Shown in pieces: positions 2,784 through 51,878 of a DNA stretch of 64,000 nt. The notes beneath the pieces were generated by a model. That model was not told the DNA's origin and ran no database searches. It saw only the letters and a list, made by a program, of their open reading frames with translations. Each line of letters opens with the position of its first letter. Within the stretch, counting starts at the first letter, position 1. A program made the translations under genes and the position numbers. Source of the stretch: Aliivibrio fischeri (GTDB lineage Bacteria > Pseudomonadota > Gammaproteobacteria > Enterobacterales > Vibrionaceae); assembly GCA_038993745.2 (NCBI GenBank), contig CP160629.1:1674001-1738000 (forward strand), in the 5' to 3' direction.

Positions 2784-5700
2784 TTAACAATCGGCAATGG
2801 CATTTTTGACTCGTTTATCAGAAACTGGATATGGCGTACCCAATTGTTGAGCAAAATAGCTAACTCTTAACTCTTCAATCATCCAACGGATCTCTTTTAC
2901 TTTGTCAGGGATTGGCTGTCCTTTCGGTATCTTATTCAGTAATTCTTTATAATCACTGGTGATCCCTTCAACTTTAAGCAAATGCATACGGTCACGATTT
3001 GGATCGATCGGCAATTTTTCCATTCGACGTTCAATCGCTTTCATGTAACGGTGGATATCTTGAAGACGCTTCCAACCACACTCCGTTGCAAATCCTTTAA
3101 AGATAAGATTTTCTATCTGAGCTTTAATATCCGAAAGCGCAAACGCCATGCTTAAATCAACACGCCCTTTTAACTTTTTCTGAATTTGGAAAGCGGTAGT
3201 TAAAATCGTTTCAACTTGTTTTGCAATCTCAACAACCGTATCCCCAAGCTCTGCTCGAATATGTTCTTTCATTTTTTCAAAGGCTTCAGGTTGCCAAACA
3301 AGACCACCCTGCTCATCAATTAACTTATCGATGCCACAAGCAATACAATCATCAATCAAGTCCATCACACGACCATACTGATTAAAGTACAAGCCTAATT
3401 TCGATTTATTAGGAAGATTGTCATGTAAATACTTAATTGGCGATGGCACATTAAGAAGAATTAAACGGCGTTGGCCTGCCTTCATTGCATTGTGCTGCTC
3501 TTCTTCTGTTTCAAACAGTTTAATTTCTACACTGTCTTTACCATCAACAATCGCTGGATAAGCTTTAACTTCAAATCCACCACGCTTTTGTTTATACAGC
3601 GTTGGTAACTCACCAAAGCTCCATGTTTTAAGGCCTTTTTGCTCAATATCATCATCAGCAACTTGTGATAATGTTTCTTGAACTTTATCTTTTAAGCCTT
3701 CTTTTAACTCATACAAATCACGACTTTCTTTTAGCTTGCGATTACGATGGTCAACAACACGGTATGTTACTTTTAAGTGATCTGGGATCTGTTCAAGTTT
3801 CCAATCTTCACGTAACACTTCAAACCCTGTCATTCGACGAAGTTCTTTCTCTAAACTGTCTAACAACGGCGCTTCAAATGGTACAGCACGAGATAAAAAT
3901 GCATCGGCATAATTAGGTGCTGGTACGAAATTCTTACGTACGGTTTTAGGTAACGACTTAATCAATGCCATAACTAATTCGTGACGTAAACCCGGAATTT
4001 GCCAATCAAAGCCATGAGGCTCAACTTGGTTTAAAATTGGTAGTGGTACATGTACCGTTACACCATCGCTGTCTTGTCCCGGCTCAAATTGGTAACTTAA
4101 TTTTAGTTTTAAGTTTCCTTGATGCCAGAAGTTTGGATAATCTAAATCCGTTACATGGCTTGCATCACCACGGAACAGCATTTCTTTTTCAAAGTTTAAT
4201 AACTCTGGCGTCTCTTTTTGCGCTTTCTTCCACCACGTATCAAAGTGACGACCAGAAACCACATCGACACCGACTCGTTGATCGTAGAATTCAGCTAGCT
4301 GATCATCATCAACAAGAATATCGCGACGACGAGACTTATGCTCAAGCTCTTCAACTTCTTGTAATAACTTACGGTTTTGCTTAAAGAACTGATGTTTAGT
4401 GTGCCAATCACCTTCAACTAATGCTGAGCGAATAAAAATTTCACGACACGCAGGCGCATCGATCGCACCGTAGTTAATTTGTCGTTTAGGTACGATTGGA
4501 ATACCGTAAATAGTGACTTTTTCATAAGCCATTACTGCCGCTGATTTCTTCGACCAATGTGGCTCGCTGTAGCTACGTTTAATCAAATGTCCTGCTAATG
4601 GTTCAATCCATTCAGGTTGAATTTTCGCAACAATTCGACCCCAAAGTTTTGAGGTTTCAACCAATTCAGCAACCATTACCCATTTTGGTTGTTTCTTGAA
4701 TAAACCAGACGCTGGAATATGTGGAATCGTGCATTACGTGCACCTTGGTATTCATTCTTTTCTTGATCTTTTTGACCAATATGAGAAAGCATACCTGCTA
4801 AAATTGCAGTATGAACACCTTGATAGCCTGCCGCTTCTTGGTTCACTTTGTAATTAAGCTCTTTCATTACTTGGCTTAATTGATAGTGAACATCTTGCCA
4901 TTCACGTACACGTAAATAGTTCAAAAAGTCTTTACGACATTGCTTTCTAAATTGATTACTTGAAAGCTCTTTCTGTTTTGCTTTTACATGTTCCCACACG
5001 TTCACAAACGTTAAGAAATCCGAATCTTCATGATTAAAGCGTTTATGTTTATCATCAGATTGCTGTTTCTTATCGCTTGGACGCTCACGTGGGTCTTGAA
5101 TTGATAGCGCCGCCGCAATGATCATCACTTCTTGTAATGCATTATATTTCGGGGCTTCAAGTACCATTCTAGCTAAACGTGGATCAATCGGAAGACGTGC
5201 TAATTCACGACCAACTTTAGTTAAGCTTTTCTTCGGGTCTTTCGCATTTGAATTAATCGCACCTAGCTCTTCAAGTAGCTTGATACCATCTTGAATATTG
5301 CGATTATCAGGGGCTTCTACAAATGGGAAGGCTTGAATATCACCTAACCCTAACGCTGTCATCTGTAAAATTACAGACGCTAGGTTAGTACGTAAGATCT
5401 CAGGGTCGGTAAACTCTGGACGAGAAATAAAATCTTCTTCAGAGTAAAGACGAATACAGATACCTTCAGATACACGACCACAACGACCTTTACGCTGATT
5501 TGCACTGGCTTGTGAAATCGCTTCGATTGGTAAACGTTGTACTTTGGTGCGATAGCTATAGCGACTAATACGTGCAGTACCTGGATCTATAACGTATTTG
5601 ATTCCCGGAACAGTAAGAGATGTTTCTGCTACGTTAGTGGCTAATACAATTCGACGACCAGCGTGTGGTTGGAAGACACGATTCTGCTCTTGTGCAGATA

Positions 5701-6679
5701 AACGTGCGTATAACGGTACAATTTCCGTATCACGTAGATTACGTTTTTCTAATGCTTCTGCGGTATCACGAATTTCTCGTTCACCCGTCATAAAGATCAG
5801 AATGTCACCCAGCCCTTCTTCACACAGTTCATCTACTGCATCAAAGATACCTTCTAATTGGTCACGATCGGTATCATCACCATCTTCAACAATTGGGCGA
5901 TAACGAGTTTCAACCGGATAAGTACGACCAGATACTTCAATCATTGGTGCATTATTGAAGTGTTTTGAGAAACGCTCAGGATCGATAGTTGCTGACGTGA
6001 TAATGACTTTTAAATCAGGACGCTTTGGTAATAACTCACGTAAATAACCCATAATAAAATCGATGTTTAAGCTGCGTTCGTGCGCTTCATCGATAATTAA
6101 TGTGTCGTATTGATTTAAGTAACGGTCATTCTGGATCTCAGCCAGTAAGATACCATCCGTCATTAATTTAACTTGTGTACGGTCAGAGACTTGATCATTA
6201 AAACGAACTTTATAACCAACATGGCTACCTAGTTCTGTCTCCATCTCTTCAGCAATACGATCTGCTACTGAACGAGCCGCTAAACGACGAGGTTGCGTAT
6301 GACCAATATTACCAAACTTACCGCGACCTAGTTCTAAACAGATTTTAGGTAACTGCGTGGTTTTACCTGAACCGGTTTCACCAGCAACGATAACCACTTG
6401 GTTATTTTTGATTGCTTCTGCAATTTCATCTTTTTTCTGGCTAACAGGTAGTTGTTCTGGGTAAGAAATCGTCGGACGATCAGTTTCACGATTATTCGCC
6501 GTTTGCATTGATTGTGCGATATCTAATGCAATTTCATCAAACACGGCGTGTCTTGATTCTTCTTTTTTGATTCGAGATGCGCCTTGAATGCGTTTACTTA
6601 GGCGAAAACGATCACGCATCATACATTCACTTAATGCTTTTCTAAGTGTTGATGCTGAATTTTGATTTGATTGACTCAA
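2784..6679 (-). CDS. hrpA: ATP-dependent RNA helicase HrpA (one frameshift)
   Basis: HrpA is a DEAH-box RNA helicase, in E. coli linked to mRNA processing and rescue of stalled ribosomes. The 5' part (4676-6679) has Walker A GETGSGKTTQ (about residues 100-109), DEAH in IDEAHERS (about 197), SATI and QRKGRCGR. The 3' part (2784-4676) carries the OB-fold and the HrpA-specific C-terminal domain. Joined, they give about 1298 residues, the usual HrpA length. The frame is lost near 4714-4717: adding one base restores the expected FPASGLFKKQPKW junction. The start appears to be TTG at 6677-6679 with AGGAAA just upstream. The break is probably a sequencing deletion; if real, the C-terminal half would be lost. 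Confidence 0.93.
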
Positions 6680-6860
6680 AATATTTCCTACTGAATCTTT
6701 TATTTATTCTAATAACTAAAGCAATTCTATCACATTCTTGTCTCTATCGAGCCTTAGTAGACAAAAATCTGTTTTACTTAAATGTAATAATTCTCGATTG
6801 CTCGAACTAATACCTATTTGCTAAACTGAATAGATTAATCCCAACCATTAAGACAGTCGT

Positions 6861-7187: not shown

Positions 7188-7210
7188 CATCGCTTCTTAT
7201 TGCTTAACTT

Positions 7211-7252
7211 TGGCAAGAATTAATACATTTTAAAATCGGTTAATTCTTGCCA
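7211..7252. repeat. inverted repeat between tusE and acyP
   Basis: Perfect 13-bp arms (TGGCAAGAATTAA and TTAATTCTTGCCA) enclose a 16-base loop. It covers the stop codon of the minus-strand acylphosphatase gene and lies 24 bp past tusE. No T tract follows on either side, so it may be an RNA-stabilising hairpin rather than a classic terminator. Confidence 0.7.
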
Positions 7253-7491
7253 TTGTGTCTCTTCTTTCTCTATTGAATCTACTCTCGCTAATTGCGGCCC
7301 AACCTGTAACCATTCAAGAAATTGATTAATTTTATCTTCATTACCACATACTAACACTTCGACAGAACCATCTTCTTGATTACGTGCATAGCCGGTTAAA
7401 CCAAGTTTTAACGCGTTATGAGCGGTATGAAAACGAAAACCTACACGCTGTACTTTTCCCTTACATTAAATAGATATGATTTTTGTGACAT
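7220..7491 (-). CDS. acyP: acylphosphatase (one frameshift; hidden gene)
   Basis: Acylphosphatase hydrolyses carboxyl-phosphate bonds in the cytosol. The reading frame starts at the ATG at 7489-7491 (MSQKSYLFNV), then loses one base: a T run at 7461-7462 (+ strand) needs three Ts. With the base restored, the product reads on as GKVQRVGFRFHTAHNALKLG, then LTGYARNQEDGSVEVLVCG, ending ELTDFKMY: the family signature with the catalytic Arg in VGFRF and Asn in YARN. The restored length is 90 residues, exactly usual for the family. It is convergent with tusE. Because of the frameshift it is missed by simple ORF calling. A true pseudogene cannot be excluded, but the same lesion type recurs across the window. 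Confidence 0.88.
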
Positions 7492-7577
7492 GCTTCACCT
7501 ATAAGTGTCGATTATAATAAGAATTTCTTAATCATGAGATATTATCCTTCGCTCCTCATCATATATACGGATTTATT

Positions 7578-12677: not shown

Positions 12678-12695
12678 ATATTCACTTAAACGTTA

Positions 12696-15600
12696 TTAAT
12701 CCACTTTAAACATATTAAAATCATTATAAAGTGTACTTAGGATATCTTGGTCACTCATAGAGCCCAAATCACTGATACCTAGTGTCGTACTATCAACACC
12801 TTTTAGAGTGATATCTGTTTGATTTCCTAATTCATCAGTAACGGATAATACAGTTTGCGAGTTGCTATCATCAATATTCACATTAATGTGTTGCAACATA
12901 TCATCCATGGTTGAGCTAGCTTGAATTGAATCAGGTAATAACTCAGCTAAATCAAGAATATCCGCTTCATTATTCACTGCGACGCCTTCAACTGCAAAAT
13001 CTGCAATAGATGTTTGAGCTGGTGAAGCTGAACTACCAGCAATTTCATCTGCGAAATAAAAGATATCATTACCACCACCCCCCGTTAGGATGTCATTTTG
13101 ACCTGAAGCATATAGCGTATTATTCGCTTCATTACCAAAGGTTTCAGACACAACTAGATGTCCTGAATTTGTAAGTGACGTTAATTTCTCTTCATCAGTC
13201 ATTGATGCTGTTGATTCTCCAGTTAACTCATCTAGAGTAACACCATCGACAACAATGGTTTGAACCGTGCTCCCTGCTTCATTGATATAAATTTCAGTAC
13301 TGCCATCAACTTCTGAAATTTGTATTTGAGAAGCAAGCGTAGCCGAATCCCAAACAGTGGTGATATTAGCAATGTCAGTTAAATCAATTCTGTCGCTATT
13401 TACGTCAAAATCTTTAATGATATCGCGAGCTAAATCTCCGCCAATCGATGCATTTGTCCATGTGAATGTATCAGCCGTTCCCGCATCAGATAAATCTAGT
13501 GGATTACCAAACAGCAATTCATCATTGGTTGTTCCAGTTAAAATATCTGAGCCAGAAACGCCTTGAACCACATTAGGAGCAGCTACGGCAACAGTGATGA
13601 CCTGTTGAGTAATGCCACCTTTTCCATCTGATGCTTCAACAGTGAAAACATCTGTCGTATCAGTTGCTAATGCCAAGGTACTGTTTTCAGTAAGAACATA
13701 TGTCCATAACCCTGCTGCATTGATGCTTAACGTACCATAAACACCTGTAGCTGAAGATGATGAGGAGATTTGCCATCCTATCGGATCACTCTCTGCATCG
13801 GTTGCATTTAATTGACCAGAAACCGTCTCAACAACGCCCTCTTTGACATCAGCGGTAGTGGTTCCAGTAATAACTGGAGCATCATTCTCACCTGTAATAT
13901 CAATAGTAATGACTTGCTGTGTTACCTGTCCTGTCGCATCAGTAACATCAATAACTAAAGACTCTTGTGCCCCATCAGCACCAATTGCTTGTGCTAAGCT
14001 ATCAATTAAATCGTATTCCCATTTACCTGTTGCAGGATCAACAATGAATGTGCCATATAAAGGTGTTGATGTTGTTGAAACAGTATAGCCAATTAATGTA
14101 CCTTCTGGGTCCAGATATGTAATCGTTCCTTCTGCATGTAGCTCTCCATCTTCAACAACCGTTCCTGTCGTTTCCTGAGTTGCCCCTGCATCAATAATTG
14201 GCTGGTCATCATGCCCAGTCACGCTTACCGTAATATCTTGGGTTACTGTTCCACCATTACCATCTGAAACTTCAATTGTAAAAATTTCAGTTGCAACAAT
14301 ATCACCTAAAGCTTGAGCTTTATCGTTATCCAGAAGATAACTCCACTCACCATTAGCATCAACAGTTAGCTCGCCATATAATCCAGTAACATCTCCAGGT
14401 GTTGCTGCGGTATTTGGACCTGAAACAACAGTGTAAGTGAAACTGGTATCAGTTAAATCCACATCCGATACATCTAATTGACCACTGGCGGTAGCGGTAC
14501 CATCTTCTTCAACACTTCCAATAATGATACTTGATGCATCAACCGTAGGATTATCATTCTCACCTGTAATATTGATAGTAATTACTTGTTGTATTGTTCC
14601 GCCAGTTTGATCCGTTACTTCAATGGTATAGGTTTCTTGAGCACCAGTAACGCCAATTTCTTGGGCTAAACCATTCAATAGCTCATAAGTCCATACGCCA
14701 TTTGCATCAACTGTAAACGTACCATAAGGTGAAGAGGGAGAATTAATCACATTATAATTAATCGCATCCCCTTCTGGATCCACATAAGCAACTTGACCTG
14801 TTGCTGTTAGTGTTCCATCTTCAACTACCGTACCTTCGGTTACTTGTGGAATGGTCGTATCGATAATAGGGTCATCATCGGTACCTGTGATATTCACGAT
14901 AACGTCTTGTGTAATTACACCACCATTTCCATCATCAATTTGAATCGTAAACGTTTCTGTAATCGTTTCATCACCAATCTCTTGAGCTTTATCGTTATTT
15001 AATACGTAAGTCCACTTCCCGTTAGCATCCACGGTTACAGAACCATAAGCATCTGTAGGTGATGTAGTGACACTGAAATCAAACGTTGTATCATTTAAAT
15101 CTATATCTGTAATATCTAGCTGCCCTGACTGAGTCTGAGTCCCAATGCCATCTTCTTCTACATCAACAGAAAGAATACTGGTATCCACAACTTCAGGGTC
15201 ATCGTTAGTACCATTTACTGTAAAGGTAATGTCTTGTGTACTACTTAAACCATGTTCATCTGTCACTTTAACGGTATAGGTTAAATCCAGTGATTCACCA
15301 ACGCCTAGCTGCTGTATTTCTAACGCTGAGTTATCGATTACTAATTTATAATCACCGTTAGGATCAAAAGTTAAGGTTCCCAAGCTATCGCCACTTAGTA
15401 CTTCCCAAATATGGGTATCCGCTGTATCAGGATCACCATCATCCCAATTACCTGTTACCTCAAGATTACCATCAGCATTAAGATCGGTATCTTCTGTCAC
15501 CTCAGAAGGAACAGTCACAACAAGGTCTGGAGCATCATTTTCACCATTAATAGTAATCGTGATGGTCATCTCTGCCGTGTCACCTGCATCATCCGTTGCA

Positions 15601-25250: not shown

Positions 25251-25269
25251 GTTTTTAATGACTATTAAG

Positions 25270-26729
25270 TTACTGAGTCAATTGTGTTCTATTATTCTTT
25301 CTCTTCATTATCCAACCGACACCAACAGAAAGAACTAATATTACTATCAAAAATGGTATTAATTGCTCTAATTGTCCTCCCTTAGAAAAAGTTAAAATTA
25401 GCATTAATAACCAACCACTTACCATTGGTATCAAAGTTCGACGAACTATATCAAATGGAGACAAACCTGAAATACCGGCAACAGCAATGATAACACCTGC
25501 AATCGGAGATATTGTTCTACCAAAACCTGCAGATAATTGAATTGGTAAGATCATATCTACAGTATTCGCACCTATTTTATGAGCAATTTGGGCACCATTG
25601 GAGCAAAAGAGAAAAAGGCCGCATTCCCTGATCCCATTAATGCAGAAATAATGAAAGTTAATAGAGCCATAAACAAAATAATAACAGCAGCAGAAAGCCC
25701 AACGCTACTTGCCATATGTAACATTGAATCAATAGCTCCTATTGACTTTAATCCCATAGAAAAAGTCTGGCCTGCTATAATTAAAGTTACAACAGAAGCA
25801 AAAACTTTTCCCATATCATCAAATACTCCTTGTAGTTTTTCAAATACAGGTTTTACTTCTCTTTCTCGAATAAATTCAAATACAAGGCTAATAAAAATAC
25901 TCAAAATGATAGCAGTTGCCATACCCACATTAATTGTCTTCACGCCAAGGCTGCTAAATGTAAGCATAAAAAATAATGGTAACATTGGAAGTATTACATA
26001 ATAGAAGGGAACACTTTGTTCCGATTCAATATCTTCATAATTTATTAGCTCTAATGTCTGATTTTTTTCGTCATTACGGTCAAAAAAACGTTGTGTAATT
26101 GCATGCATAATTGCCACAACTATAATCAATACGCTAATAATTGGTAATTGTTCCCCAACAAAGTATTCCGTAATCTCTAGACTAGCGGTTTGAGCAGCTA
26201 AAATTGAGTTTCCTGAACCAGGACCAAACTCAATTGCGCAAGTACTCGCTAATACAGAAGCAACACCCGCTTTACTACAGCCCAGTCTAATCAATACAGG
26301 ATAAAGTGTTGCCATCAACAATAAACCAAGTCCCGTTGCACTTGAGATAAAGAGCGATAACATCTGACCAAGAATAAAGGCAAGTGCTAGCATCAAGTAA
26401 GGTGAATTTAGCTTCATTAATGGCTTAGCTGTTAACTTTACCATTACTTGACTTGCTCCTATAACTGACATTAATAAGGCAAACCCTCCTATAAGCATTA
26501 TTTTTAAACCTAAACCACCGGATTGTTTGCCAAAAACCATGCTTATATATTCAAAAACATCAAACCCTATCCAACCCGTCGATTTATCGACAAAAGTAGC
26601 ATTGTTAGTAAAGATTGATATGGTCATCATAACGATACCAACAAAGAAGAGTACGCCTTGGGGGTTATAGTTTTTTAAAATTAATCTTCCCGCAAGAATC
26701 AATCCACATAATGCAATAAATAAACTCAT
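25270..26729 (-). CDS. dcuC: DcuC-family C4-dicarboxylate transporter (one frameshift)
   Basis: The product is an inner-membrane protein of about 486 residues with ~11-12 hydrophobic segments, aligning along its length with E. coli DcuC (e.g. LNSPYLMLALAFI, SSATGLGLLLMATL, GSGNAAFFSFAPMVP, LSAGFGRTISPIAGV). DcuC exchanges C4-dicarboxylates such as succinate and fumarate. The frame is lost at the G run 25590-25592 (+ strand): adding one base joins APMVPQIAHKIGANTVDM. The chosen start is ATG at 26727-26729 behind AAGGG, not the upstream TTG at 26747. It begins 10 bp after the iadA stop and so is co-transcribed with it, suggesting uptake or exchange linked to aspartate release from isoaspartyl dipeptides. 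Substrate is inferred. Confidence 0.86.
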
Positions 26730-26739
26730 ATCTAATCCC

Positions 26740-27876
26740 TTATTCAAAGTTTCCAGTTACAAGTAATTCATTATCAAGCAGTACTGTTTTACCTTTTGCT
26801 ACTACCCCATAAAGTGTAAAGTCATCGTTAAATATGCATAAATCAGCATCTTGACCAAGCTGTAATCGACCTTTATTAATGCCCAGAGAATCTGCAACAT
26901 TTGATGTTAACATTGCAATAGCTATTTCGGGGCTAATACCTGATTCAATCAATTTAGGTAATAACAATAAGTTTCCATCAACATTTGCAGCAGTTAACGC
27001 AACCATATTTCCATCAATATCAAACTTTGGCAGACTACCATTCCCATCTGAACTTACTGTTATATATTTCGGATCTATACCAGATTCTATCGCTTGTTTA
27101 ATCGCAAGCTCAGGGGCAATAAATTGACTACCTCCAGATGTGATATCAATATAACCACCTCGGCGAGCAAATTGCATAGCTTCATTAAATAAAGATTCAG
27201 TTCGAGCAACATGGGTTGGTGAAAATGGCTAATGGGTATCCCCATATTTAATAACTCAAAAACAGAAGCAAAAGGATCAGATAGAGCCCCCATATGCATG
27301 TGCAACACCCCTCGTTTTTTAGCTAATAAGCTAGCAATACGTATATCGGAAACAATACGACTCAATTCTTGTAACGTTGGAAATGAGCACCTATGATCTG
27401 CTAGCGCTATCTTTACACCGAGAACTGAAGGTAAAAAAGAGATATCATCCCGAATGGATGTAGTTATCGTTTTTGTTGGCACCTCATACGACCCAGTATG
27501 CATATAAGCTGTAATCCCTTCTTCTGTAAGTGCTGCAGCTTTTGCATATAAATCGCGTGGTGAACGAGAAATACCATCTGTTCCCAATACCCAACGACAC
27601 TTGTTGTTCCTGCCTGAATTAACTTAGAAAATGTAACTTGTGGCGTTCGACTAGAAAAACCGCCCTCACCACCCCTCCAATCAGATGTACATGTTGATCT
27701 ATTAAACCTGGAGTGACTGTTTTCCCTTTACAATCAATAATCGAAATATCACCAATGCCTTGAACATTCAAATCAGATTCAATAGAAATTACCTTTCCAC
27801 AACCAATCAACACATCAACTTTTCCTAAGTGCTGAGGAGCGTATACATTTGCATTCTTTAATAAAATAAACATCAT
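26740..27876 (-). CDS. iadA: isoaspartyl dipeptidase (three frameshifts)
   Basis: IadA is a zinc amidohydrolase that cleaves isoAsp-X dipeptides from damaged proteins. Reading through three frame breaks gives about 379 residues that align with E. coli IadA (390): GLIDQHVHLIGGGGEGGFSS with the metal-binding HxH, GVLGTDGISRSP, SDHR-like LADHR, a HMGALSDPF segment, SPTHVAR and TVSSDGNGSLP with the catalytic Asp. Each break is cured by one base: C run 27672-27675, C run 27590-27592 and A run 27222-27225 (+ strand). The start is one of two adjacent ATGs (27876 or 27873), the second better spaced from GAGGG. It is first in an operon with dcuC; a LysR regulator is divergent. Three independent decays in one gene are less likely than consensus error. 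Confidence 0.88.
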
Positions 27877-28066
27877 TCCCTCTACTTCATATATTATTTA
27901 TACATTCCACCTCCCTTATATCCTGATATTTATCTCGATGAATATTTGAGAGCTAGAACTATCAAAACAATAATAACCATATAAAAAATGTGAGTATCTC
28001 GATTTCTATTGCTAATTTTGAATGATAGTATTCTTATAAATCATAATGATAAAGATGAGTTGTTAA

Positions 28067-28966: not shown

Positions 28967-29138
28967 AGGCGACCATTATGATCACCTTTTTTACCTCATC
29001 TAGGTAGCGAATAGTTAAGTTCCGAATTGTTCCATCTTCTTCTCCAAACTCTTCTTCGGTATCAAACAATACTGGGAAATGTCTACCTTCAAGCACACCA
29101 CCATCTTTGGTTAAATGCCCCATTCGATAGCTGTTCAT
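28908..29138 (-). CDS. hypothetical small protein, doubtful
   Basis: The frame from ATG 29138 encodes an acidic, well-composed N-terminal part (MNSYRMGHLTKDGGVLEG, then FDTEEEFGEEDGTIR) of about 50 residues that looks like true protein. The remainder (VIIMVAFIF onward) is read from the lysR terminator and the 3' end of lysR antisense, so the real gene probably ends near 28985, or is a fragment. There is no good ribosome binding site: only GGA touches the ATG, and an in-frame stop lies seven codons upstream. No family is recognised. Confidence 0.35.
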   Translation of the reverse strand: MNSYRMGHLTKDGGVLEGRHFPVLFDTEEEFGEEDGTIRNLTIRYLDEVKKVIIMVAFIFSSYVFLLKIAVQQDDY

Positions 29139-34272: not shown

Positions 34273-34905
34273 ATGAATTTTGACTTGAATGCTATTCCTT
34301 CTACCTTTGATTTAGGACACATTGTCCTGTTCGGTACATCTGCTCTATTTGCATTATTGTACATAACGAAGAAAGGTAAAGCGGTAGAGATCGAAAAAAC
34401 GGTTGAAGTCGAAAAAATCGTCGAAGTTGAGAAACCTGTAGAAAAAATCGTCGAAATCGAAAAAGTTGTTGAAGTTGAAAAGATCATTGAAAAAATCATC
34501 GAAGTTGAGCCAAAAGTAAAAGCATCAACGCCTGAGTCTGCTTTACAACTATTAGCTTTATTACAAAAAGAAGCTCGTTTTATCGACTTTATGCAAGAAG
34601 ATCTAAAAGGCTTCGCAGATGCAGAAGTTGGCGCTGCAGCTCGTGTTATTCATGAAGGCGGTCAGAAAGTATTATCTGACTACTTTACTCTTACTCCAGT
34701 TCGTACAGAGGAAGAAGAGTCTCGTTTATCTATTCCTGCTGGTTTTAACCCATCGGAAATTCGTCTAACGGGTAATGTAGTTGGTGAAGCACCATTTAAT
34801 GGCACATTAATTCACCGTGGTTGGAAAGTAGCAGAAGTGAAGCTACCAAAGCTAGCTGAAGGTTATGACGCAACAATCATTGCTCCAGCAGAGGTTGAAC
34901 TGTAA
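34273..34905 (+). CDS. DUF2760 membrane-anchored protein of the Hsp70 cluster
   Basis: The 210-residue protein has one hydrophobic segment (about 14-32, HIVLFGTSALFALLYI) and then a striking stretch (about 37-77) of repeated VEVEK/VEKIV units, predicted to be a long charged rod, encoded by a degenerate DNA repeat at about 34385-34515. The C-terminal part (ALQLLALLQKEARFIDFMQED, then GAAARVIHEGG and FNPSEIRLTGNV) is the DUF2760 domain. The domain accompanies Hsp70 genes of this type. The stop TAA shares a base with the ATG of the next gene, indicating translational coupling. Function unknown; a membrane tether or client adaptor for the Hsp70s is inference. Confidence 0.88.
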   Translation: MNFDLNAIPSTFDLGHIVLFGTSALFALLYITKKGKAVEIEKTVEVEKIVEVEKPVEKIVEIEKVVEVEKIIEKIIEVEPKVKASTPESALQLLALLQKEARFIDFMQEDLKGFADAEVGAAARVIHEGGQKVLSDYFTLTPVRTEEEESRLSIPAGFNPSEIRLTGNVVGEAPFNGTLIHRGWKVAEVKLPKLAEGYDATIIAPAEVEL

Positions 34906-36723
34906 TGGAACAAGCTAAATACAGCATTGGTATCGATTTAGGTACAACTCACTGTGTACTTTCATACGTTGATTTACATGATGAAGAGGCAAGCGTTCAA
35001 GTAATGCCTATTCCTCAACTTACCGCTCCAGGTCAAGTTGAAGAGAAATCGCAGCTGCCTTCTTTCATGTATCAAGCACATGAAGCTGAACTATTAGAAG
35101 GTGATACAAGCCTTCCTTGGACAACCAAGCCAAACGCAATTGTTGGTAGTATTGCCCGCAACCTTGGTAGTAAAACACCAATTCGTTTAATTGCGAGTGC
35201 GAAAAGTTGGTTATGTCACGGTGGCGTAAACCGTCGTGAAGCATTCTTACCACTAAACAGTCCTGAAGAAGTGATCAAAGCATCACCTCTTGAAGTAACA
35301 AAACGTTATTTAGAGCATTTACAAAACGCTTGGGATCATCAAAATCCAGAGCACCCTCTAAATGAACAAGACATTACAATTACGGTACCTGCATCATTTG
35401 ACCCTGCTGCTCGTGATTTAACAGCAGAAGCGGCAAATAATCTTGGTTTCCGTAACTTAACGCTTTTAGAAGAACCACAAGCAGCAGTATACAGCTGGAT
35501 CAAAAATAACGATGATTCATGGCGTGACCAAGTATCGGTTGGCGATGTGATTTTAGTTGTCGATATCGGTGGTGGTACAACGGATTTATCATTAGTTGCT
35601 GTTACTGAAGAAGAAGGTAATTTAAGCCTAAACCGTGTTGCGGTAGGTGACCATATTCTTCTTGGTGGTGACAACATGGATTTAGCTCTAGCTTATCGCT
35701 TAAAAATGAAGCTAGCGCAAGAAGGTAAGCAGTTACAACCTTGGCAAGTTCAAGTGATGACACACGCTTGTCGTGATGCAAAAGAAGCACTATTAAATGA
35801 CGCAGAATTACGTGCAGTGCCGATTGTGGTTCCTAGTCGTGGTTCTAAGTTGTTAGGTGGTACGCTACAAACTGAATTAACTCAAGAAGAAGTTCAACAA
35901 ACTTTAGTTGAAGGCTTCTTCCTGTTGTTCCTGTGACTGAGCACCCAGTTCAATCTGCACGTGGTGCATTAACTCAAATGGGTCTTCCTTATGCACAAGA
36001 TGCAGCGGTAACTCGTCACCTTGCTAGCTTCTTGACTCGTCAACAAGCAGCAACTGATGAAGTATTTGGTCAACAAAACGAATCTGATTTTATTAAACCA
36101 ACGGCCATTCTTTTAAACGGTGGTGTTCTAAAATCAAACCTACTTGCAGAGCGCCTACTTGGCATTATTAATCAATGGTTAATTGATGGCGAAGCGGAAG
36201 ATGCAAAACTGCTTGAAGGTCTTGACCTTGATTTAGCGGTTGCTGCGGGTGCTTCTTACTACGGCTCTGTACGTACAGGTAAAGGGTTCGTATCCGTGGT
36301 GGTATTGCATCAAGCTACTATGTTGGTATCGAAAGCTCTATGCCTGCAATTCCTGGAATGGAACCACCAATGGAAGCATTATGTGTTGCTCCATTTGGTA
36401 TGGAAGAAGGCTCGCATGCCGATGTACCTAGCCAACAATTTGGTTTAGTGATTGGTCAACCTGTGCAGTTTAAATTCTATGGTTCTACTACTCGTCGTGA
36501 TGACCAAGCAGGAACACATTTGGATTTCTGGATGCCTGAAGAGCTAGAAGAGCTACCTGCAATTCAAGTGACGTTACCTGTTACTGAAGGACGTACCGCA
36601 GGTGAAGTGGTTCCTGTTCGTTTAGCCTCTAAAGTCACTGAGCTTGGTACTCTATATCTTGAAGCGATTGCTGCAGATAGTGGTGAGAAATGGCACGTTG
36701 AGTTTGATGTTCGTGAAGCATAA
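34905..36723 (+). CDS. Hsp70-family (DnaK-like) protein, YegD-related (two frameshifts)
   Basis: Restored, this is a 606-residue Hsp70-family ATPase: phosphate-1 loop GIDLGTTHCVLSY (residue ~9), TVPASFDPAARDLT, EEPQAAVYSW, phosphate-2 VVDIGGGTTDLS (~225) and LNGGVLKS (~400), then a short beta-type C-terminal part. It lacks the usual DnaK substrate lid. The frame breaks at the CC at 35921-35922 (expected PVVPVTEHP) and the GGG at 36284-36286 (expected GKGVRIRGGIAS); one base each restores it. It is coupled to the DUF2760 gene upstream. A terminator at 36757-36793 separates it from the second Hsp70 gene. The role is presumably chaperone-like with unknown clients. Confidence 0.87.
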
Positions 36724-36911: not shown

Positions 36912-39727
36912 ATGAGTTCTTCTAATCGCTATTTAATTGGTATCGATCTTGGTACTACTCACACCGTTGTTGCTTATACTGATATTTCTCTTGGTATTGA
37001 AACTAGCCCAATTGAAATCTTCAATATCGACCAATTAATTGGACCAGGTGAAGTGGCTCGTAAACCCCTACTTCCATCATTTCGTTATCATGCATCACAA
37101 AGTCAAATCACTGAAAATGATCTGACACTGCCTTGGAATGTAAAAGCAATTGAAGGTGAGATAAAGAACGCCATTATTGGTGAGTGGGCTCGTGAATTAG
37201 GGTCAAAAGTAGAAGGTCGCCAAGTCGTAAGTGCTAAGAGTTGGTTATCCCATACTAAAGTTGATCGCACCTCTGATATTCTTCCTTGGGCAGGCGCAGA
37301 TGATGTCGAAAAAGTGTCACCTATTGTTGCCAGTGCAAGCTATTTAAACCATGTACGTCAATCGTGGAATTACCACCACCCAGATGCCCCAATGGAGCTT
37401 CAGGAAGTGGTTGTTACCGTACCGGCATCTTTTGATGAAAGTGCACGCTCATTTACGATTGAGGCAGCAAAACTGGCAGGCCTTGATAAAATCATCCTAT
37501 TAGAAGAGCCACAAGCGGTGTGTTACGACTGGTATCATCACCATCAAGATACGGCAAAAGAAATCTTAAAAACCATCCCATTAATGGTGGTGTGCGATGT
37601 TGGCGGTGGTACAACCGATTTAAGCTTGATTCAAGCTCGCTTTAATAACGACGAATTGGCACTTGATCGTATTGGCGTGGGCGATCACTTAATGCTAGGT
37701 GGCGATAACATTGATTTAGCGCTAGCACATTTGGCTGAACAGCGCTTAGATAGCGGTAAAAAAATGACGGCAGCCGCGTTAACCAAGCTTATCCAACAAA
37801 CACGTAAAACAAAAGAGCGTTTGCTATCTGCTAATGCTCCCGAATCAGGCCACATTACCCTACTTGGATCTGGTTCTAAATTATTAGGTGGCAGTCGTAA
37901 AGTCGAGTTGACCAAAGAAGAAGTTCACCAAATCGCATTGGATGGATTCTTACCACTGACTGACTTTAATGACCGTCCAAATCAACGTCAAACTGCTGTT
38001 GTTGAATTTGGTTTACCTTATGCTTCTGATCCTGCTATCAGTAAACACTTAGCTCAGTTCTTAGATAATCATAAAGAAGTCTCTGCAAAAGCATTAGGTT
38101 GGGATGATGCTGAATTGGCTAATCACGAAGACCGTGCAATACCTGTAGGTTTGCTGCTTAATGGCGGTGTTTTTAATAGCCCATTATTGGCTGAACGTTC
38201 TCTTCAACTACTTAATAACTGGAACGGTGACAGTGTCACCCAACTATCAAACCCTCATCCAGATCTAGCGGTTGCTTATGGCGCAGTTGCTTATGGCAAA
38301 GCACGTCATGGTGCACAATTAAAGATAGGTGGAGGCTCAGCTCGTTCATTCTATTTACAGCTAGAAGAGAAAAACAAACAACCTCAAGGTCTGTGTTTAT
38401 TAGCTAAAGGCAGTGAGGAAGGTGAAGAGATCCGCATGACGAGTCGTCGTTTCTCGTTAACCTTGGGGAACCTGTTCGTTTTAATCTACTTTCTACAACA
38501 AAAGATCAACTTGCAACCTCAGGCATGATCACTGAATTAGCTGATTCTAGCTTTGTTAGCCTACCTCCTTATGTGGTAACACTAGAATCTAGTAAATCAA
38601 AAGATGAACTGCATGCAAACCAAAAAGATCGCGTTGAAGTAACCTTAGCTTGCCAATTTACAGAAGTCGGAACCATTAAAATTGAATGTGTTTCTGTTGA
38701 GGACGATTCACAGCGTTGGTTGGTTGAATTTGAAGTACGTAATCAAGCGTCTAATAAAAGCGCTAACCTTGCGGATCAAATTAGCCTTCCCCCTCGCCTA
38801 CCTAATGCTATAGCAAGCATTAAAGAGGCTTATGGCGGTAGCAAACAAAATCCAAATGCCATCAAAGCTTTTAATAAAAATATTGAAAAGCTAATTGGTA
38901 AGCGTGAATCGTGGGATCTTATTACGTCTCGTGAACTTGCAACAGCATTACTTGATAGTAAAAAACGTCGTCGTCGCTCTGACAAACACGAACAAAACTG
39001 GTTAAAAATGACGGGATTCGCTTTACGTCCCGGTTTTGGCTACCCTGCTGATGAATGGAAGATATCTCAGGCATGGGAAACCTATCAACAAGGTATTCAA
39101 TTTGAATCGAAACAATCTTGGAACGATTGGTGGACATTCTGGCGTCGGATCTCTGGTGGTTTAAATCAAGAGCAACAAGAAACCATTTTAGCTGATATGG
39201 CGAAATACCTGCATCCTGGCTCTTTACGCAACCCAAAAACATTAGAAGAAGCCAGTAACAAAAGTTATGAAGCTATGGTACGACTTGCCGCTGCACTCGA
39301 ACATTTGGATGTAGAAGATAAAATGTTGATTGCATCTTGGGTATTAGGCCATGCTAAAAATGGAAATCAACCGCAAGTACATTGGTGGGCATTAGGCCGA
39401 ATTTGTTCACGTTCACCATTCTATGGAAGTCAGCATAATTTAGTGCCGCCAAGCCAAATATCTCAATGGCTACCAACATTATTAGAGCAGGATTGGAAAG
39501 AACAGCCCATGGCTGGTTTTGCCGCAGTAATGATGGCTCGCTTAACCGGTGATAGAACCCTCGATGTTTCAGATGAATATCGAGAAAAAATCATCGAAAA
39601 ATTGAAAAAAAATCGCTGCCCACAAAGCTGGATTGAATTAGTATCAAGCCAACAAGCATTGACAGAAGCAGACTCTAAACGCTTATTTGGTGACGCATTA
39701 CCCGCAGGCTTACGTCTAATCAATTAG
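36912..39727 (+). CDS. Hsp70-family protein with C-terminal DUF3731 (one frameshift)
   Basis: Restored, this is a 938-residue protein. The first ~600 residues are an Hsp70 ATPase related to the preceding gene (GIDLGTTHTVVAYTD, VTVPASFDESARSF, VVCDVGGGTTDLSLI, LGSGSKLLGGSR, LLNGGVFNSPL). The last ~330 are a helical region (from RLPNAIASIKEAYGGS; RESWDLITSRELATALL; WKISQAWETYQQG) matching the DUF3731 extension. The frame is lost at GGGG 38465-38468, where a fifth G restores GEPVRFNLLSTT. The two Hsp70s are about equally far from DnaK, so the pair may be an ancient duplication with the second gaining the extension. Clients and co-chaperones are unknown. Confidence 0.86.
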
Positions 39728-40943: not shown

Positions 40944-42094
40944 ATGATTACGCATGTTGGCATTTTAGATCAAGACCCCGTACGTCTTATCACCCCCCTT
41001 TTAGACTTATCTGTTAAAGGGGAACACATGGTATTTATCGGCGATGAAACTCAAAAAGAGATGTTCCATCGACTGGAGTCAATTCTAAAATATAAAGGGA
41101 TCAGTTCTGATTTTTTGAAATCCCTAATATTGTTGATACCCACGCAATCAAGCAGTCATTACAAGCGCTTGCTGCTGAAATGAAACTTCACTTTAGTGAC
41201 ATCAAATTAAATGCGAGTTGTGGTCTTCGTCACCGTCTTCTTTCTGCCTATGAAGTGTTCCGTTCATATCATTGGCCAATCTTTGTTGTAGAGCCATACA
41301 GTGATAAATTATGCTGGTTATACCCAGATGGTCGCAAACAAAAACACGTTGCTGATAATATTCGCTTGAGTGATTATCTTGCTATTTTTGGGGCTCGTTG
41401 TGAGTTTTCAGAAACTGAATTACCAGAAAGTATCGATAAGCGCTTAAGAGAACTATGCCAACGCTGGGCAAGCAACGCATTAGAGTTAGGCCCGGGCTTA
41501 GCAACATTAAACTACTTAGCAACCACCTGTCGTAAAGAACAACGTTTAGATGTTGAAGTAACAGAAAAACAGCAGAGTTATAAAGAGCTTAATATGCTAC
41601 TAACTGACCTTGTAGAAACAGGGTTAGCGACCTATGAAAACGGCATACTCACTTTTGATTGCGAAGAAGCTCGTCGTTTAGCTAATGGTGAATGGCTTGA
41701 AATATTGGTTCACAACACGGTTGTCGATATTCAGCAATATTTACCAACACTGCAAGACCATTCATTAAATGTTCAAGTGCATCGTGAAATTGGTGAAAAA
41801 GACGTTCGTAATGAACTTGATGTGGTTAGTATCGTGAATAACAAACTGCATATCATTGAATGTAAAACCAAAGGCATGCGTGATGATGGTGATGATACAC
41901 TTTACAAATTAGAATCATTACGTGATTTACTTGGTGGACTGCAAGCTCGTGCAATGTTAGTAAGTTTCCGTCCTCTACGTAATAACGACATTATGCGCGC
42001 ACAGGATTTAGGCTTAGCTATTATCGGCCCTGATGAATTAGGCGATCTTAAAAAACACCTTCTTAACTGGTTCTTAGCGGCCGGTGGTCATTAA
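40944..42094 (+). CDS. DUF1887/VC1899-family CARF nuclease (one frameshift)
   Basis: Restored, the product is 383 residues, the family length. An N-terminal Rossmann-like CARF domain (MITHVGILDQDPVRLITPLL) is followed by a winged-helix part and a C-terminal PD-(D/E)xK nuclease core: NELDVVSI and HIIECKTKG supply the Asp, Glu and Lys. The group includes V. cholerae VC1899 and the cyclic-oligoadenylate-activated Card1/Can2 nucleases of type III CRISPR systems. The frame is lost in the T run 41111-41116; a seventh T gives SDFFEIPNIVDTHAIKQSL. No CRISPR array, cas gene or other cyclase is seen in the window, so the activating signal is unknown. Nuclease activity and ligand binding are family inference. 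Confidence 0.87.
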
Positions 42095-43221: not shown

Positions 43222-45536
43222 TTACTCTTTTTCTTTAAAACGTAATAAGCGAAGTGCATTTAAGGTCACGAGAGCCGTTGCACCGCTATCAGCTAACACA
43301 GCAACCCATAAACCTGTAATACCAAATAAGCTAGTCACTAAGAAGACGGCTTTTAAACCAAGCGCTAATGTAATGTTTTGGTGAATATTACTTAGTGTTG
43401 CTTTTGATAGTGCCACCATTGGTGCAAGCTCTTCTAAACGGTTGTGCGTTAACGCAGCGTCTGCAGTTTCCAGTGCCACATCAGTTCCGCCCCCATCGCA
43501 ATACCGATTGAAGCCGTTTTCATAGCTGGAGCATCATTAATGCCATCACCTACCATTGCCGTTTTCGCATTAGCGGTTAATTGCTCAACATATTTCACTT
43601 TATCAGAAGGTAATAAACCCGCTTTGTAGTCAATATTTAACTCTGCTGCTATGGCTTTTGCTGCTCGCTCATTATCACCAGTAAGCATGATTGGTTTAAT
43701 TCCTAATTTAACCAACTTTTCTACAGCAATTTTAGCATCAGGACGAAGTTCATCACGCCATGCTAATAATCCAGAGATCTGCTCATTAATCAGCACCAAA
43801 ACAACCGTTTTACCTTGCTGCTCTAAGAAAGCGATTTGGCTTTCAATTTCAGGAATAACTTCGCCATCAAATTGTTGAGGTGCATATAATTCAATATGTT
43901 GATCGTTAACCGTTCCTTTAATACCTTTACCAACAACCGTCTCACGATTATCTGCTTCAATAACCGTTAACCCCTGCTCTTGCGCTCTAACTACAACAGC
44001 TCTTGCTAACGGATGAGATGATCCCATTTCTACCGCAGCTGATTGAAGTAAAATACTCTCTTCCGTTTCGGTTTCAGTTAATACTCGAATATCGGTTAAA
44101 ACAGGTTTTCCTTGCGTCAATGTGCCTGTTTTATCAAAAGCGATATTTTGGATATGACCTAACTCTTCTAAAGCAGCGCCACCTTTAATTAATGCGCCAC
44201 GCTTTGCAGCCGTTGCTAAACCAGAAGTAATCGCTGCTGGCGTAGAAATAACTAACGCACATGGGCAGGCAATCAATAGCATAGCTAAACCACGATAAAT
44301 CCATGTATCCCATGACTGACCAAACATTAATGGTGGAATAATGATAACTAGCAACGACAGCACCATCATTGCCGGTGTATACCAACGACTAAACTTATCA
44401 AGGAAACGCTCTAATGGTGCCTTACGTGACTCAGCTTCTTCAATTAGATGAAGAATACGGTCAATGGCATTTTCACCTTGAGCTGAAGTGATCTGAATTT
44501 CAATGACACGATCATTAACAATAGAACCAGCCATCAATGGATCGTTTGCTTTTTTATCAACAGGTACTGATTCACCCGTTAAAGCACTTTCATCAAACGA
44601 AGCAAACTCAGAAAGTAAAATTGCATCCGCGGCTAATCGGTCACCAGGACTCACCTGCACACGGTCACCCACATTTAATTCTGATGCGGGTACTTCTTCT
44701 TTGGTTCCGTCACTGTTAATTCGTAAAGCCGTATCTGGTACTAAATCCATTAATGCTTTAACACCACTTCTTGCTTTTGCTGACGCATAGCCTTCTAATT
44801 GTTCACCTAACATAAACAATAAGATGACCATTGCCGCTTCAACGGTTTCACCTAGATACACAGCGCCAATAGCAGCAACTGTCATTAAGGTTTCAATGGA
44901 AAATGGTGAACCATTTTTTGCTAAGCGAATAGCTTTACGGCCAATCGGAATCAAACCAAACAGCCCTGCAACGGTAAATGCAATAGTACCAAATTCTTTG
45001 TTTACTACATTAATGCCTGTAGCAACCACTAAAAAAGCAACCAATAGCAATAATAATGCGTTCTTTTTCCAAAATGGCTGAGCTGCATTTTCTGATGTAT
45101 TTTTAGCATTAATATCGGTTAGCGGAAAACCCGTTGTTCTAGCAACGCTTTCAACAACATCAAATACTAATTCATCATTTGTTCGTACAGTAAGTTTTTC
45201 TGTTGCAAAAACAACGTTCGCATCAACAACATCTGGAATGGCAAGAATTGCTTTTTTTAGTTTTGCCGCACAACTTGGGCAATCCATATCAGAAATAAGC
45301 CAACTACGAGATAACGTACCTTTCTCGGATGCTTGAGGAATGACAACTAAGGGGTCTGATTCTCCAGGATCTGAACCACAACATGAATCAGAACTCGTTG
45401 GTTTATCAACACTACTACAACAATCCACAACGGCACTTTCCGCTTTGATAGTTGATATTTTTGGCTTCGCACAGCATGAGCTTGATGGGTTATGCTTATG
45501 ATCATGACAGTGCGTCGATTTATGAGTAGTACACAT
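43222..45536 (-). CDS. zntA: P-type heavy-metal ATPase ZntA, Zn/Cd/Pb exporter (one frameshift)
   Basis: Restored, this is a 771-residue P1B-type ATPase exporting Zn(II), Cd(II) and Pb(II). The N-terminus is Cys/His-rich (HCHDHKH, several CC pairs) followed by an HMA domain with CPSC at 86-89. Then come paired membrane helices, the actuator loop TGES near 320, the transport motif CPC at 424-426, DKTGTLT with phosphorylated Asp 468, and GDGINDAPA. The frame is lost at the C run 43490-43494 (+ strand); a sixth C restores MGGGTDVALETADAALTHN and the last two membrane helices (including AVLADSGATALVTLNALRLL). A MerR-type promoter lies directly upstream (45585-45616), indicating ZntR-like metal induction. 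Confidence 0.93.
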
Positions 45537-45616: not shown

Positions 45617-45637
45617 GAATATTTTTTATTTGAAACA

Positions 45638-45663: not shown

Positions 45664-45682
45664 TAAGAAGAGATGATGAAAA

Positions 45683-46099: not shown

Positions 46100-46227
46100 T
46101 ATAGCCCCCTAACGTGCTATCGCTTACTTCGATAACTTAAGTGTGGACTATTTTTGGAAAATTGCTAAATCGCTCTTTCCTATCTCTGTGATGGATAAAA
46201 CCTATTGAGCAAAAAAGAAGTAAAAAA

Positions 46228-47820: not shown

Positions 47821-47976
47821 TTATATTACAACTCTAATGAAAACAACAAACACAATATACCAACCTGTAAAAATCAAATTACAATAGTTTTAACAAACAC
47901 AACACAGTCCGTTTGCATTTAACTCGTTACAGGAATTTCGCGCTACTTTACCACAAAGTAGCGCAAAGTTAGATCA

Positions 47977-50900
47977 TTATATGTTAGTCAGTAGCGCTTG
48001 TAATGGATGCTTTAACTGCTGTCCTTCAAATCGCTTAACCTGACTACGGCATGAATAACCTGTAATCAAGCAACGTTCCTTATCCAAACTAGCTAGATTT
48101 CCTTTCCAACTTAATTCATAAATCGCTTTGGATGAGGCTAATTTTTCTGCCTCATGCCCATACGTTCCTGCCATGCCACAACAGCCAACTGGAACCGTAT
48201 TTAATTGTAAACCAAAATGACTAAAAATTGCCCCCACTCCTTCTCCGCGTTCGGCAATTTCGTTTTTTCCGTACAATGGGCAAATAATTGCCAAGCTCTA
48301 GTATCAAATACTGTCGCTTTATCAAATGAGGATAATCGAGGATATAGCCATTCATGAACGGTTAACACAGCAAAATCACCACGCTTATCAGCTAAAATCT
48401 CATTATACTCATCTCGGTAACAAAGAACTAAAGCAGGATCCACGCCAACCATTGGAATATTCAACATAGCGACTTGATTTAAAAATTCACCGCTTGTTTT
48501 TGCAGTAGAAGCAAACTGCTTTAAAAACCCTTTAATATGTTGCGCTTTTCCATTTGGTTTAAATGGAAGTAACATTGGTTTCAAGCCTAAACGTTGAATT
48601 AATTCAATAAAATCACTGACCACTTCAGCATCGTAATAGCTCGTAAATGGGTCTTGAACGATGAGTACATGCTTCTGACGCTCTTTCTCTGAAAGTTCTG
48701 ATAGCTGTTTCAAGTTAAACTCTGCAATATCATTTGTTCTACAACGCTCTTTCAATGTCGGTATAGACAGAAGAGGCATATCGACATAACCGAGTGTTTT
48801 CTTCGTAATACTTTTTGTTATTGATTGCTTTAAAACACCATTAATCAGTTTTGGCGCTTTAGCCATTAACGGCAACATAGTCTCAATATTTGCAACCATA
48901 TAATCTTTCATCGGACGTTGATAACGACTGTAATAGATATTTAAGAATCGTGACCTAAAACTTGGCACATCCACTTTTATTGGACATTGGCTCGCACACG
49001 CTTTACAAGCTAAGCACCCCATCATGGCTTCATGAACTTCGTGAGAATAATCGTATTCTCTTTCTTTATTAAACGTGTTTTTAAGGCGATCTATGATCTG
49101 TTTAATTGATGGGCGCTTGGTTAATAACTCTTTTTCCAACTCAATGGGATCGATACCCTGCTCTGAGAGTTGACGTAACCATTCTCGAACTAAACCTGCT
49201 CGTCCTTTTGGTGAATGACGTCGATCAGCCGTCACTTTCATTGATGGACACATTGGCGAACTGGTTTCATAGTTAAAACAGAGACCATTACCATTACATT
49301 CCATTGCTTGATTAAAACTGTCTCTTACTTCTACAGGTATTTGGCGATCATAAAATCCACGCTTAGTGCCACTTACTTTAACCAATTCATCATTACTGTC
49401 TAATGGTGTACAGATTTTTCCTGGGTTCATCTTATTGTATGGGTCAAACGCCGTTTTTACTCGACGCAATTCCGTGAATAGTTCTTCACCAAAGAACTCT
49501 GGACCATATTCAGATCGGAAACCCTTACCGTGCTCTCCCCACATTAAACCGCCATATTTAGAGACCAAAGCCACAACTTGATCTGAAATAGTATGCATCA
49601 ATGCTTCTTGTTCAGGATCACACATATCCAACGCTGGACGCACATGCAGAACCCCTGCATCTACATGACCAAACATGCCATAATTTAATTTGTGTGAGTC
49701 GAGCAATTCTCTAAACTCTTGGATAAAGTCCGCTAAATTTTCAGGTGGCACACAAGTATCTTCTGCGAAAGCGACTGGTTTTGCCGCTCCCTTTGTCGCC
49801 CCAAGCAGTCCTACCGCTTTTTTGCGCATCGTATATATTTTTCCGATACTTGCTACATCACTTGTTACTTGATAACCAATGATTCCTGCCGTTCCCGAAT
49901 GCTGCAATGCTTCTAATTTTTCAATTAAAGTATTAACTTGCTGCTGTACCTCATCAAGATTAGCTCCGGCAAATTCCACCATATTTAGACCAAGCATTTC
50001 TTTATCTGGAACATCGGTGATCAGATCACTCACCGTATGCCAAACAATATCCTGCTTTGCAAAATTAAGAACACGTGAATCAATGGTTTCTACAGAAAGC
50101 GCATTCGCATCTACCATAAATGGTGCATTTCTTAATGCCGCATCAAAGCTGTCATATTTAACATTAATTAACGTTCGAGCTTTAGGTATAGGGGTAATAT
50201 TCACCTTCGCTTCTGTTAAAAAAGCAAGCGAGCCCTCTGCTCCACATAAAACACGAGTAATATCGAATTCATCATTAGTGGTATCTAAGGCATTTTTTAA
50301 ATCATACCCAGTCAAGAATCGATTTAATGGCGGAAATTTATCTTCTATTTTCTGGCGATTATCTCGACACACTTTAGCCGTAACATCTAAAACCTTACGT
50401 ATTTTCTCCGGCTGTTTATCATCATCAAGTTCCGTATTTAAGCATTCTCCGTTTGCTAAAATAGCAGTAACTGCCAAAATATGATCAGATGTCTTGCCGT
50501 ATTTAAGCGAACCTTGACCTGATGCATCGGTATTGATCATTCCACCAATCGTTGCTCGGTTACTGGTTGATAAATCAGGAGAGAAGAAAAAGCCATGAGG
50601 TCGAAGTGCATCATTTAATTGATCTTTAATTAAACCGGTTTGAACTCTCACCCACCCTTCCTCAATATTAATCTCTAATACCTGATTCATATGACGAGAG
50701 AGATCAACAACAATTCCTTGCGTTAAAGATTGTCCATTTGTCCCCGTACCTCCACCACGTGGAGAAAACTGAATAGTTCGATACTCTTCTTTACTTGCCA
50801 AGGTCGTTAGACACTCGACATCTTTTGTTGTCTTTGGAAGTAAAACGGCTTGCGGCAATTGTTGGTAAACACTGTTATCTGTTGCAACAGCTAAACGACT

Positions 50901-51008
50901 CGAATATGTCGTTTCTATATCACCACTAAAATCAGTACGGCTTAATTGCTCTAAATAATCTACAACTTTTGGATCAATCGTAGATTGAAATTGTAACGCT
51001 GGTAACAT
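47977..51008 (-). CDS. ydiJ: YdiJ-type FAD/Fe-S oxidoreductase (one frameshift)
   Basis: Restored, this is a ~1010-residue enzyme as in E. coli YdiJ (1018). Residues ~45-220 are a PCMH FAD-binding domain (FSPRGGGTGTNGQSLTQGIVV), ~240-540 an FAD-linked oxidase C-terminal domain (FGHVDAGVLHVRP, GEHGKGFRSEYGPEFFG), then a ferredoxin-like part with CNGNGLC...CP and CLACKACASQCPIK, and a terminal CCG region (VPVGCCGMAGTYGHE). The family oxidises 2-hydroxy acids; D-2-hydroxyglutarate is a reported type of substrate. The frame is lost at the C run 48231-48235 (+ strand): a sixth C gives KEWGAIFSHFGLQL. Without repair the CCG domain is lost. Single-gene unit. Confidence 0.9.
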
Positions 51009-51189
51009 TGCTCCATGCTCCTTAACTCGCTGATCCCTCAGCTCTATAATGTTGTTCTATACACACTTTACAACATCTCGATTGGATAAAACATCCGGTA
51101 TATGCTATATCCGATAAATATTTGCCGCTTTAAAGGCACATATTTTGCTTTGATAATTATTATCTGTGACATTTTTAATAGAGAACGCT

Positions 51190-51878
51190 ATGAAACCAGC
51201 AATAAGAAAATCAAAAATAATTACGACGGACGATATCCTATTAACCTTATGTCGCTCAATGTCAGGAGTGTTAAGTAAAGCTACTCAAAGCTCTGTAACC
51301 TATTCTGCTATGGTACAAAAGATCACTAAAACAAGTTTAAAACCAGATTTTGGCTGTTTTGTTTTATTTGATGGTGGTTTTTCTGGTCTTGTTGTAACTA
51401 ACTTCACTAAAGACGCTGCATTAGAACTATATACAAAATACATGCGTAATATGGGCATGCCAGCTGAAGAATTAGCGATTTTACATACTTCTGATGAAGT
51501 GGGTGACGTGCTAGGTGAGCTAATGAACCAAATCGTAGGTGATTTCACAGGTCAGATCCGTAAAACACTACAAACGACGATTTCTCAAAACCAACCTAAG
51601 ATGCTGTCATTAAATAAACAAGTGATCTTATCGGTTGATACTAACCTAGATCGCCCACAAGCTCGTCGTGTCACCTTCACGACTGAAAATAATCACATTT
51701 TCTATCTTGAACTTGCTATGGATAAAACCGAATTTATTCAATTAGAAGAATTTGAACAAGAAGATGAATTCGATGCTGACGATCTATTAGACCAACATCG
51801 TTCCGCTAAGAAAGAAGAGAAAAAACAGAGCCTAATCAAGATTTCGATGACTCTTTATTTGATGAGTTAGGTATTTAA
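51190..51878 (+). CDS. DUF3334 protein (one frameshift near the end)
   Basis: The 229-residue restored product matches DUF3334, a Vibrio/Shewanella family resembling chemotaxis-associated CheX/FliN-like folds (segments LCRSMSGVLSKATQSSV, DFGCFVLFDGGFSGLVV, EVGDVLGELMNQIVGDFTG). The start is ATG 51190 (MKPAIRKSK), after AGAGAACGCT; an upstream in-frame ATG at 51166 is less likely. The A run 51820-51825 appears one short: with a seventh A the C-terminus reads KTEPNQDFDDSLFDELGI and stops at 51876-51878, an acidic tail in keeping with the preceding acidic region. As it stands the frame ends at 51870 with an unlike tail. Function unknown; GELMNQIVG recalls CheC/CheX active-site helices, which is only suggestive. 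Confidence 0.8.

What the first reader, a model, noticed from the sequence alone, without database searches (positions are those of the whole stretch)
4714..51825. Thirteen single-base losses in homopolymers break ten genes: likely consensus error, not decay
Seen in the sequence: hrpA (4714-4717), acyP (7461), dcuC (25590), iadA (27222, 27590, 27672), the first Hsp70 (35921, 36284), the second Hsp70 (38465), the CARF gene (41111), zntA (43490), ydiJ (48231) and the DUF3334 gene (51820) each regain the full family reading by adding one base to a short run. All are minus-one and none is an insertion; only hrpA leaves the choice of base ambiguous. Housekeeping genes are hit, and restored lengths match the families (acylphosphatase 90 residues, YdiJ about 1010, CARF protein 383). 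This pattern is typical of uncorrected long-read consensus. Any automatic annotation of this window would mis-call ten genes as fragments or pseudogenes.
Basis: partly seen in the sequence, partly recalled or inferred. Interest (0 to 1): 0.7.

Follow-up and report, generated by a model that had tools for sequence, protein, structure and literature searches.

The report
Consensus errors breaking Aliivibrio genes
Ten ordinary genes in this stretch of an Aliivibrio fischeri-like genome look broken, most likely only because the deposited sequence has dropped single letters, a sequencing-assembly fault also found in the other parts of the genome that were sampled, and not because the genes are decaying.

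Summary
All 13 frame breaks are present in the deposited sequence. Each is one base shorter than the same site in two relatives whose genes are open, and none is an insertion. The 'homopolymer' label fits 8 of 13; at the other five (25590, 27672, 36284, 38465, 43490) a lone A or T between two identical G/C bases is missing, so its neighbours now form one run.

The consensus-error reading is well supported. In 444 kb sampled from this 4.35 Mb genome, compared with Aliivibrio fischeri emors.2.1 and DSM 507, 285,321 coding bases aligned in both relatives; there G000 alone carries 35 single-base deletions and 0 insertions (one insertion at the outermost base of a frame, falls outside its margin). 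They split 32 of 326 compared genes, including ftsI, found once, and one of two EF-G genes. Loss frequency climbs with run length and is higher for G/C runs; broken genes are about as constrained as intact ones. G000's substitution branch is about as long as its relatives' (arithmetic). Extrapolated, some 470 such errors are expected genome-wide. Raw reads were not available, so the platform and the true bases are untested. Ordinary artefact.

The parts
2784..6679 (-). hrpA (ATP-dependent RNA helicase), split at about 4714 into two open pieces
   Evidence: residues 1-655 and 656-1298 in different frames, 99.8 and 99.4% identical to the DSM 507 protein
7220..7491 (-). acylphosphatase (90 aa in relatives), break at about 7461
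25270..26747 (-). dcuC, break at about 25590 (a lone base, not a run)
   Evidence: G002; G010; DSM 507 lacks the block
26740..27876 (-). iadA (beta-aspartyl peptidase), three breaks at about 27222, 27590, 27672; the last is a lone base
   Evidence: three minus-one differences against both G002 and G010
34905..36723 (+). first Hsp70-like gene (606 aa in relatives), breaks at about 35921 and 36286 (the latter a lone base)
   Evidence: three pieces in three frames, 99-100% identical
36912..39727 (+). second Hsp70-like/DUF3731 gene (938 aa in relatives), break at about 38468 (lone base)
40944..42094 (+). Card1-like endonuclease gene (383 aa in relatives), break at about 41111
43222..45536 (-). zntA-type metal ATPase (771 aa in relatives), break at about 43492 (lone base)
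47977..51008 (-). ydiJ (1010 aa in relatives), break at about 48231
51166..51875 (+). DUF3334 gene (237 aa in relatives), break at about 51828

Best explanation
The 13 breaks are residual single-base deletions in the consensus of an incompletely polished assembly, most plausibly long-read only, of an Aliivibrio fischeri-like strain. Base-calling and consensus building under-count runs, more so the longer the run and more for G/C runs, and sometimes drop a lone A or T between two G/C bases. The cell's genes are very probably intact. Shown here: sign, spread over the sample, run-length dependence, near-normal constraint, a hit in single-copy ftsI, an ordinary substitution branch. Inferred: the long-read platform and the true bases, because no reads were held.
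For: 35 coding deletions against 0 coding insertions private to G000 in 285,321 jointly covered coding bases, on both contigs. Coding deletions per 10,000 runs: 1.1, 0.3, 2.1, 0, 16, 68, 165, 0 for A/T runs of 1 to 8 (the last class holds 37 runs); 0.2, 3.1, 20, 56, 204 for G/C runs of 1 to 5, and 2 of 6 for G/C runs of 6. ftsI lies in two pieces in different frames, 100 and 99% identical to the DSM 507 protein, and the other matches in the genome are at 31% identity or less. EF-G is split near residue 35, its larger piece 100% identical (a second EF-G at 54% identity exists). Non-synonymous over synonymous codon differences against G002 are 312/1719 = 0.182 in 32 broken genes and 1762/11519 = 0.153 in 294 intact ones; the one premature stop in a broken gene is at its last sense codon. 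Identities are 95.14% (G000-G002), 95.16% (G000-G006) and 95.26% (G002-G006), so branch lengths are near equal. DSM 507 was assembled from Illumina plus Nanopore reads (PMC9753721, whole text). A like error profile, mostly false deletions tied to runs of 2 to 8 with a small incidence at non-repeated bases, is described for a Nanopore assembly (PMC12007338, abstract and one section read).
Against: No reads were seen. Five of 13 window losses and 11 of 35 sampled coding losses are lone bases, not run losses. In the Nanopore study read, A/T runs carry most deletions, whereas here G/C runs are worse per run, so the platform is not settled. The relatives are about 5% diverged, not the same strain, and their own private coding rows are not zero (9 and 12). 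A few single sites could be true mutations. The ratio 0.182 is slightly above 0.153; no significance test was run.
Confidence: 0.96

Rival explanations
1. Real gene decay: this strain is losing many genes by frameshift, as host-restricted lineages do.
For: The breaks are present in the deposited sequence; the broken genes' N/S ratio is slightly higher, 0.182 against 0.153.
Against: No coding insertions in 35 events, the only premature stop in the broken genes is at a last sense codon and intact genes hold 8, and ftsI, found once, is hit the same way.
Confidence: 0.02
2. A mismatch-repair hypermutator strain truly gained frameshifts at runs.
For: Deletion frequency rises with run length.
Against: Mutators are expected to gain insertions and many substitutions too (recalled); here coding insertions are 0 of 35 and the substitution branch is about as long as those of the relatives. 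11 of 35 losses are lone bases. mutS and mutL were not examined.
Confidence: 0.01
3. Programmed ribosomal frameshifting at some sites.
For: Two window sites are runs of 6 or 7 bases in the relatives.
Against: The relatives read the same genes in one open frame, so no shift site is conserved.
Confidence: 0.01

Closest known systems
Gene-fragmenting indel errors of long-read assemblies (Kastor paper, PMC12007338; abstract and section 6 read)
   Same: Mostly false deletions, tied to runs from two bases up, with a small incidence at non-repeated bases; genes split into fragments.
   Different: There A/T runs carry most deletions; here G/C runs are worse per run. The platform of this genome is unknown.
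Pseudogene formation in host-restricted bacteria (recalled)
   Same: Genes split by frameshift.
   Different: Real decay is expected to bring insertions, stops by substitution and relaxed constraint as well; these were not seen in the broken genes apart from one stop at a last sense codon.

Membership tests
Consensus error of an under-polished assembly | One-sided sign of single-base indels in coding sequence | tested here: met
   35 deletions, 0 insertions private to G000
Consensus error of an under-polished assembly | Frequency rises with homopolymer length | tested here: met
   table; 11 of 35 are lone bases, so it is not the only mode
Consensus error of an under-polished assembly | Spread over the genome regardless of gene function, essential genes included | tested here: met
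   both contigs sampled, 444 of 4,346 kb; essentiality of ftsI is recalled
Consensus error of an under-polished assembly | Accurate reads of the same strain disagree with the consensus | not testable with these tools
   no reads held
Real pseudogene decay | Relaxed constraint and other disabling changes in the broken genes | tested here: not met
   N/S 0.182 broken against 0.153 intact, no significance test; one stop, at a last sense codon
Mismatch-repair hypermutator | Raised substitution rate and indels of both signs | tested here: not met
   mutS and mutL not examined
Programmed frameshifting | Shift site conserved in relatives | tested here: not met
   relatives read the genes in one frame

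The most novel reading that the evidence does not exclude
The lone A/T losses may mark an unrecognised DNA modification in this strain that misleads base-calling: 9 of 9 such coding losses in the joint sample, and 11 of 11 with the dcuC and iadA sites, have G or C on both sides, where 27,261 of 83,001 lone A/T bases do. The pattern was noticed after the fact, and no methyltransferase or motif search was run.
Probability: 0.1. Interest if true: 0.3.

Novelty: not a real feature. Interest (0 to 1): 0.12.

Why it matters
Anyone using this genome should not read its split genes as biology: about one compared gene in ten is split in the sample (32 of 326), and an extrapolated 470 or so errors would inflate pseudogene counts and hide core genes. 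Claims about gene loss in this strain need corrected sequence first.

Tried and rejected
Real decay, hypermutation and programmed frameshifting were considered and rejected as above. A literature search found the DSM 507 announcement (whole text read), which matched G006 and not this genome; a search for Vibrio fischeri PacBio papers (listing only) gave nothing usable, so the strain and platform of this genome stay unknown. The first greedy alignment lost the dcuC-iadA block, so chunked alignment replaced it. One search's filter for opposite-sign pairs left pairs within 10 bases labelled uncompensated, which overstates the relatives' counts: by eye six of G002's nine coding rows are such pairs, and five of the nine G006 rows printed lie in the repetitive 3975-aa gene. 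In 'coding' means inside a frame of at least 80 codons in both unaffected genomes, 12 bases or more from its ends; the rest counts as non-coding. One search printed only tblastn matches above 80% identity, which dropped iadA and the dcuC tail; one search repeated it without that limit. The chunked comparison with G010 did not cover dcuC, so that site was aligned directly. Genes broken in the two 100-kb blocks and in the flanks were not named; the 10 scanned are those of the five scattered stretches. mutS/mutL, CRISPR arrays and methyltransferases were not searched.

Full report
Identity. The window is G000:C1:1674001-1738000 of a 4,345,505-base genome in two contigs, listed as 99.99% complete. 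Two near relatives served as yardsticks: G002, whose 1,418,672-base contig has the length of one of Aliivibrio fischeri emors.2.1, and G006, whose 2,970,859-base contig has the length of chromosome 1 of the type strain DSM 507. These names rest on the lengths. Over the aligned sample the three are nearly equidistant: 95.14, 95.16 and 95.26% identity. The strain of the window itself was not identified.

Observation. Each of the 13 sites is one base short in G000 against two relatives: nine against G002 and G006, three in iadA against G002 and G010, and the dcuC site against G002 and G010. tblastn with the relatives' proteins puts the pieces of the genes in different frames of the window, with iadA back in its first frame after three losses. 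Eight losses are from runs of 2 to 7; five are lone A or T bases between two identical G/C bases. Of the 64,000 window bases, 63,990 aligned to at least one of the two relatives and 59,582 to both. I found no further clear coding break in the window; one 1-base difference near the dcuC stop at 25282 is undecided.

Genome-wide test. I sampled 444 kb (window, 80 kb of flanks, five 20-kb stretches on both contigs, two 100-kb blocks on the first), of which 321,671 bases aligned in both relatives, 285,321 of them inside frames of at least 80 codons in both. Single-base changes private to G000: 35 coding deletions, 0 coding insertions, 33 non-coding deletions, 25 non-coding insertions. Private to G002: 6 coding deletions, 3 coding insertions, 21 and 18 non-coding. 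Private to G006: 4 coding deletions, 8 coding insertions, 16 and 16 non-coding (all, rows marked compensated included). The outer 12 bases of each frame count as non-coding there; without that margin one G000 insertion sits at the outermost base of a frame. By eye, six of G002's nine coding rows are opposite-sign pairs within 10 bases, and five of the nine uncompensated G006 rows lie in the repetitive 3975-aa gene. G000's coding excess is thus made of deletions only. At 35 per 285,321 coding bases the whole genome would hold about 470 (extrapolation).

Signature. Counted by run length in G002, coding deletions per 10,000 runs are 1.1, 0.3, 2.1, 0, 16, 68, 165, 0 for A/T runs of 1 to 8, and 0.2, 3.1, 20, 56, 204 for G/C runs of 1 to 5, with 2 of 6 G/C six-base runs hit. 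The denominator is all jointly covered runs, coding or not. Of the 35, 11 are lone bases: nine A/T, all between G/C bases, and two G/C.

Biology. Of the ten broken genes from the five scattered stretches that I scanned, NCBIfam names EF-G, pta, zapE (two breaks) and malF above their cut-offs, and FtsI just below its cut-off, 706 of 737 bits. ftsI was found once: other matches are at 31% identity or less. Its essentiality in gammaproteobacteria is recalled. The two ftsI pieces are 100 and 99% identical to the DSM 507 protein. EF-G is split near residue 35, and a second EF-G gene at 54% identity exists. Non-synonymous over synonymous codon differences are 0.182 in 32 broken and 0.153 in 294 intact genes; the one premature stop in the broken genes is at a last sense codon, and intact genes hold 8. 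Branch lengths computed are about 2.5, 2.4 and 2.4% for G000, G002 and G006, so no mutator effect shows.

Conclusion. The platform is inferred. The closest published description read is PMC12007338 (abstract and section 6). Interest is low: the value is a warning about this assembly.

Noticed in passing
25260-28986: The dcuC-iadA block gives long matches in 3 of 14 genus genomes examined, own included (G000, G002, G010); G006 has only a 66-base match. It looks like a patchy accessory block.
   Followed up: partly
about 43155 and 59750: G002 carries about 16.7 kb extra at the first place and G006 (DSM 507) about 21.7 kb extra at the second; contents not examined.
   Followed up: no
12696-24623: An open 3975-aa frame whose parts align in several registers to the relatives, as an internally repeated gene would.
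   Followed up: no
40944-42094: The gene called CARF matches the Card1-like endonuclease domain (PF09002) in its second half; no separate CARF family was hit at the limit used. A nearby CRISPR array was not searched for.
   Followed up: partly
G000:C1:1647954-1649395 (outside the window): Weak matches to a penicillin-binding protein fall in two open frames of 296 and 380 aa, possibly another split gene.
   Followed up: no
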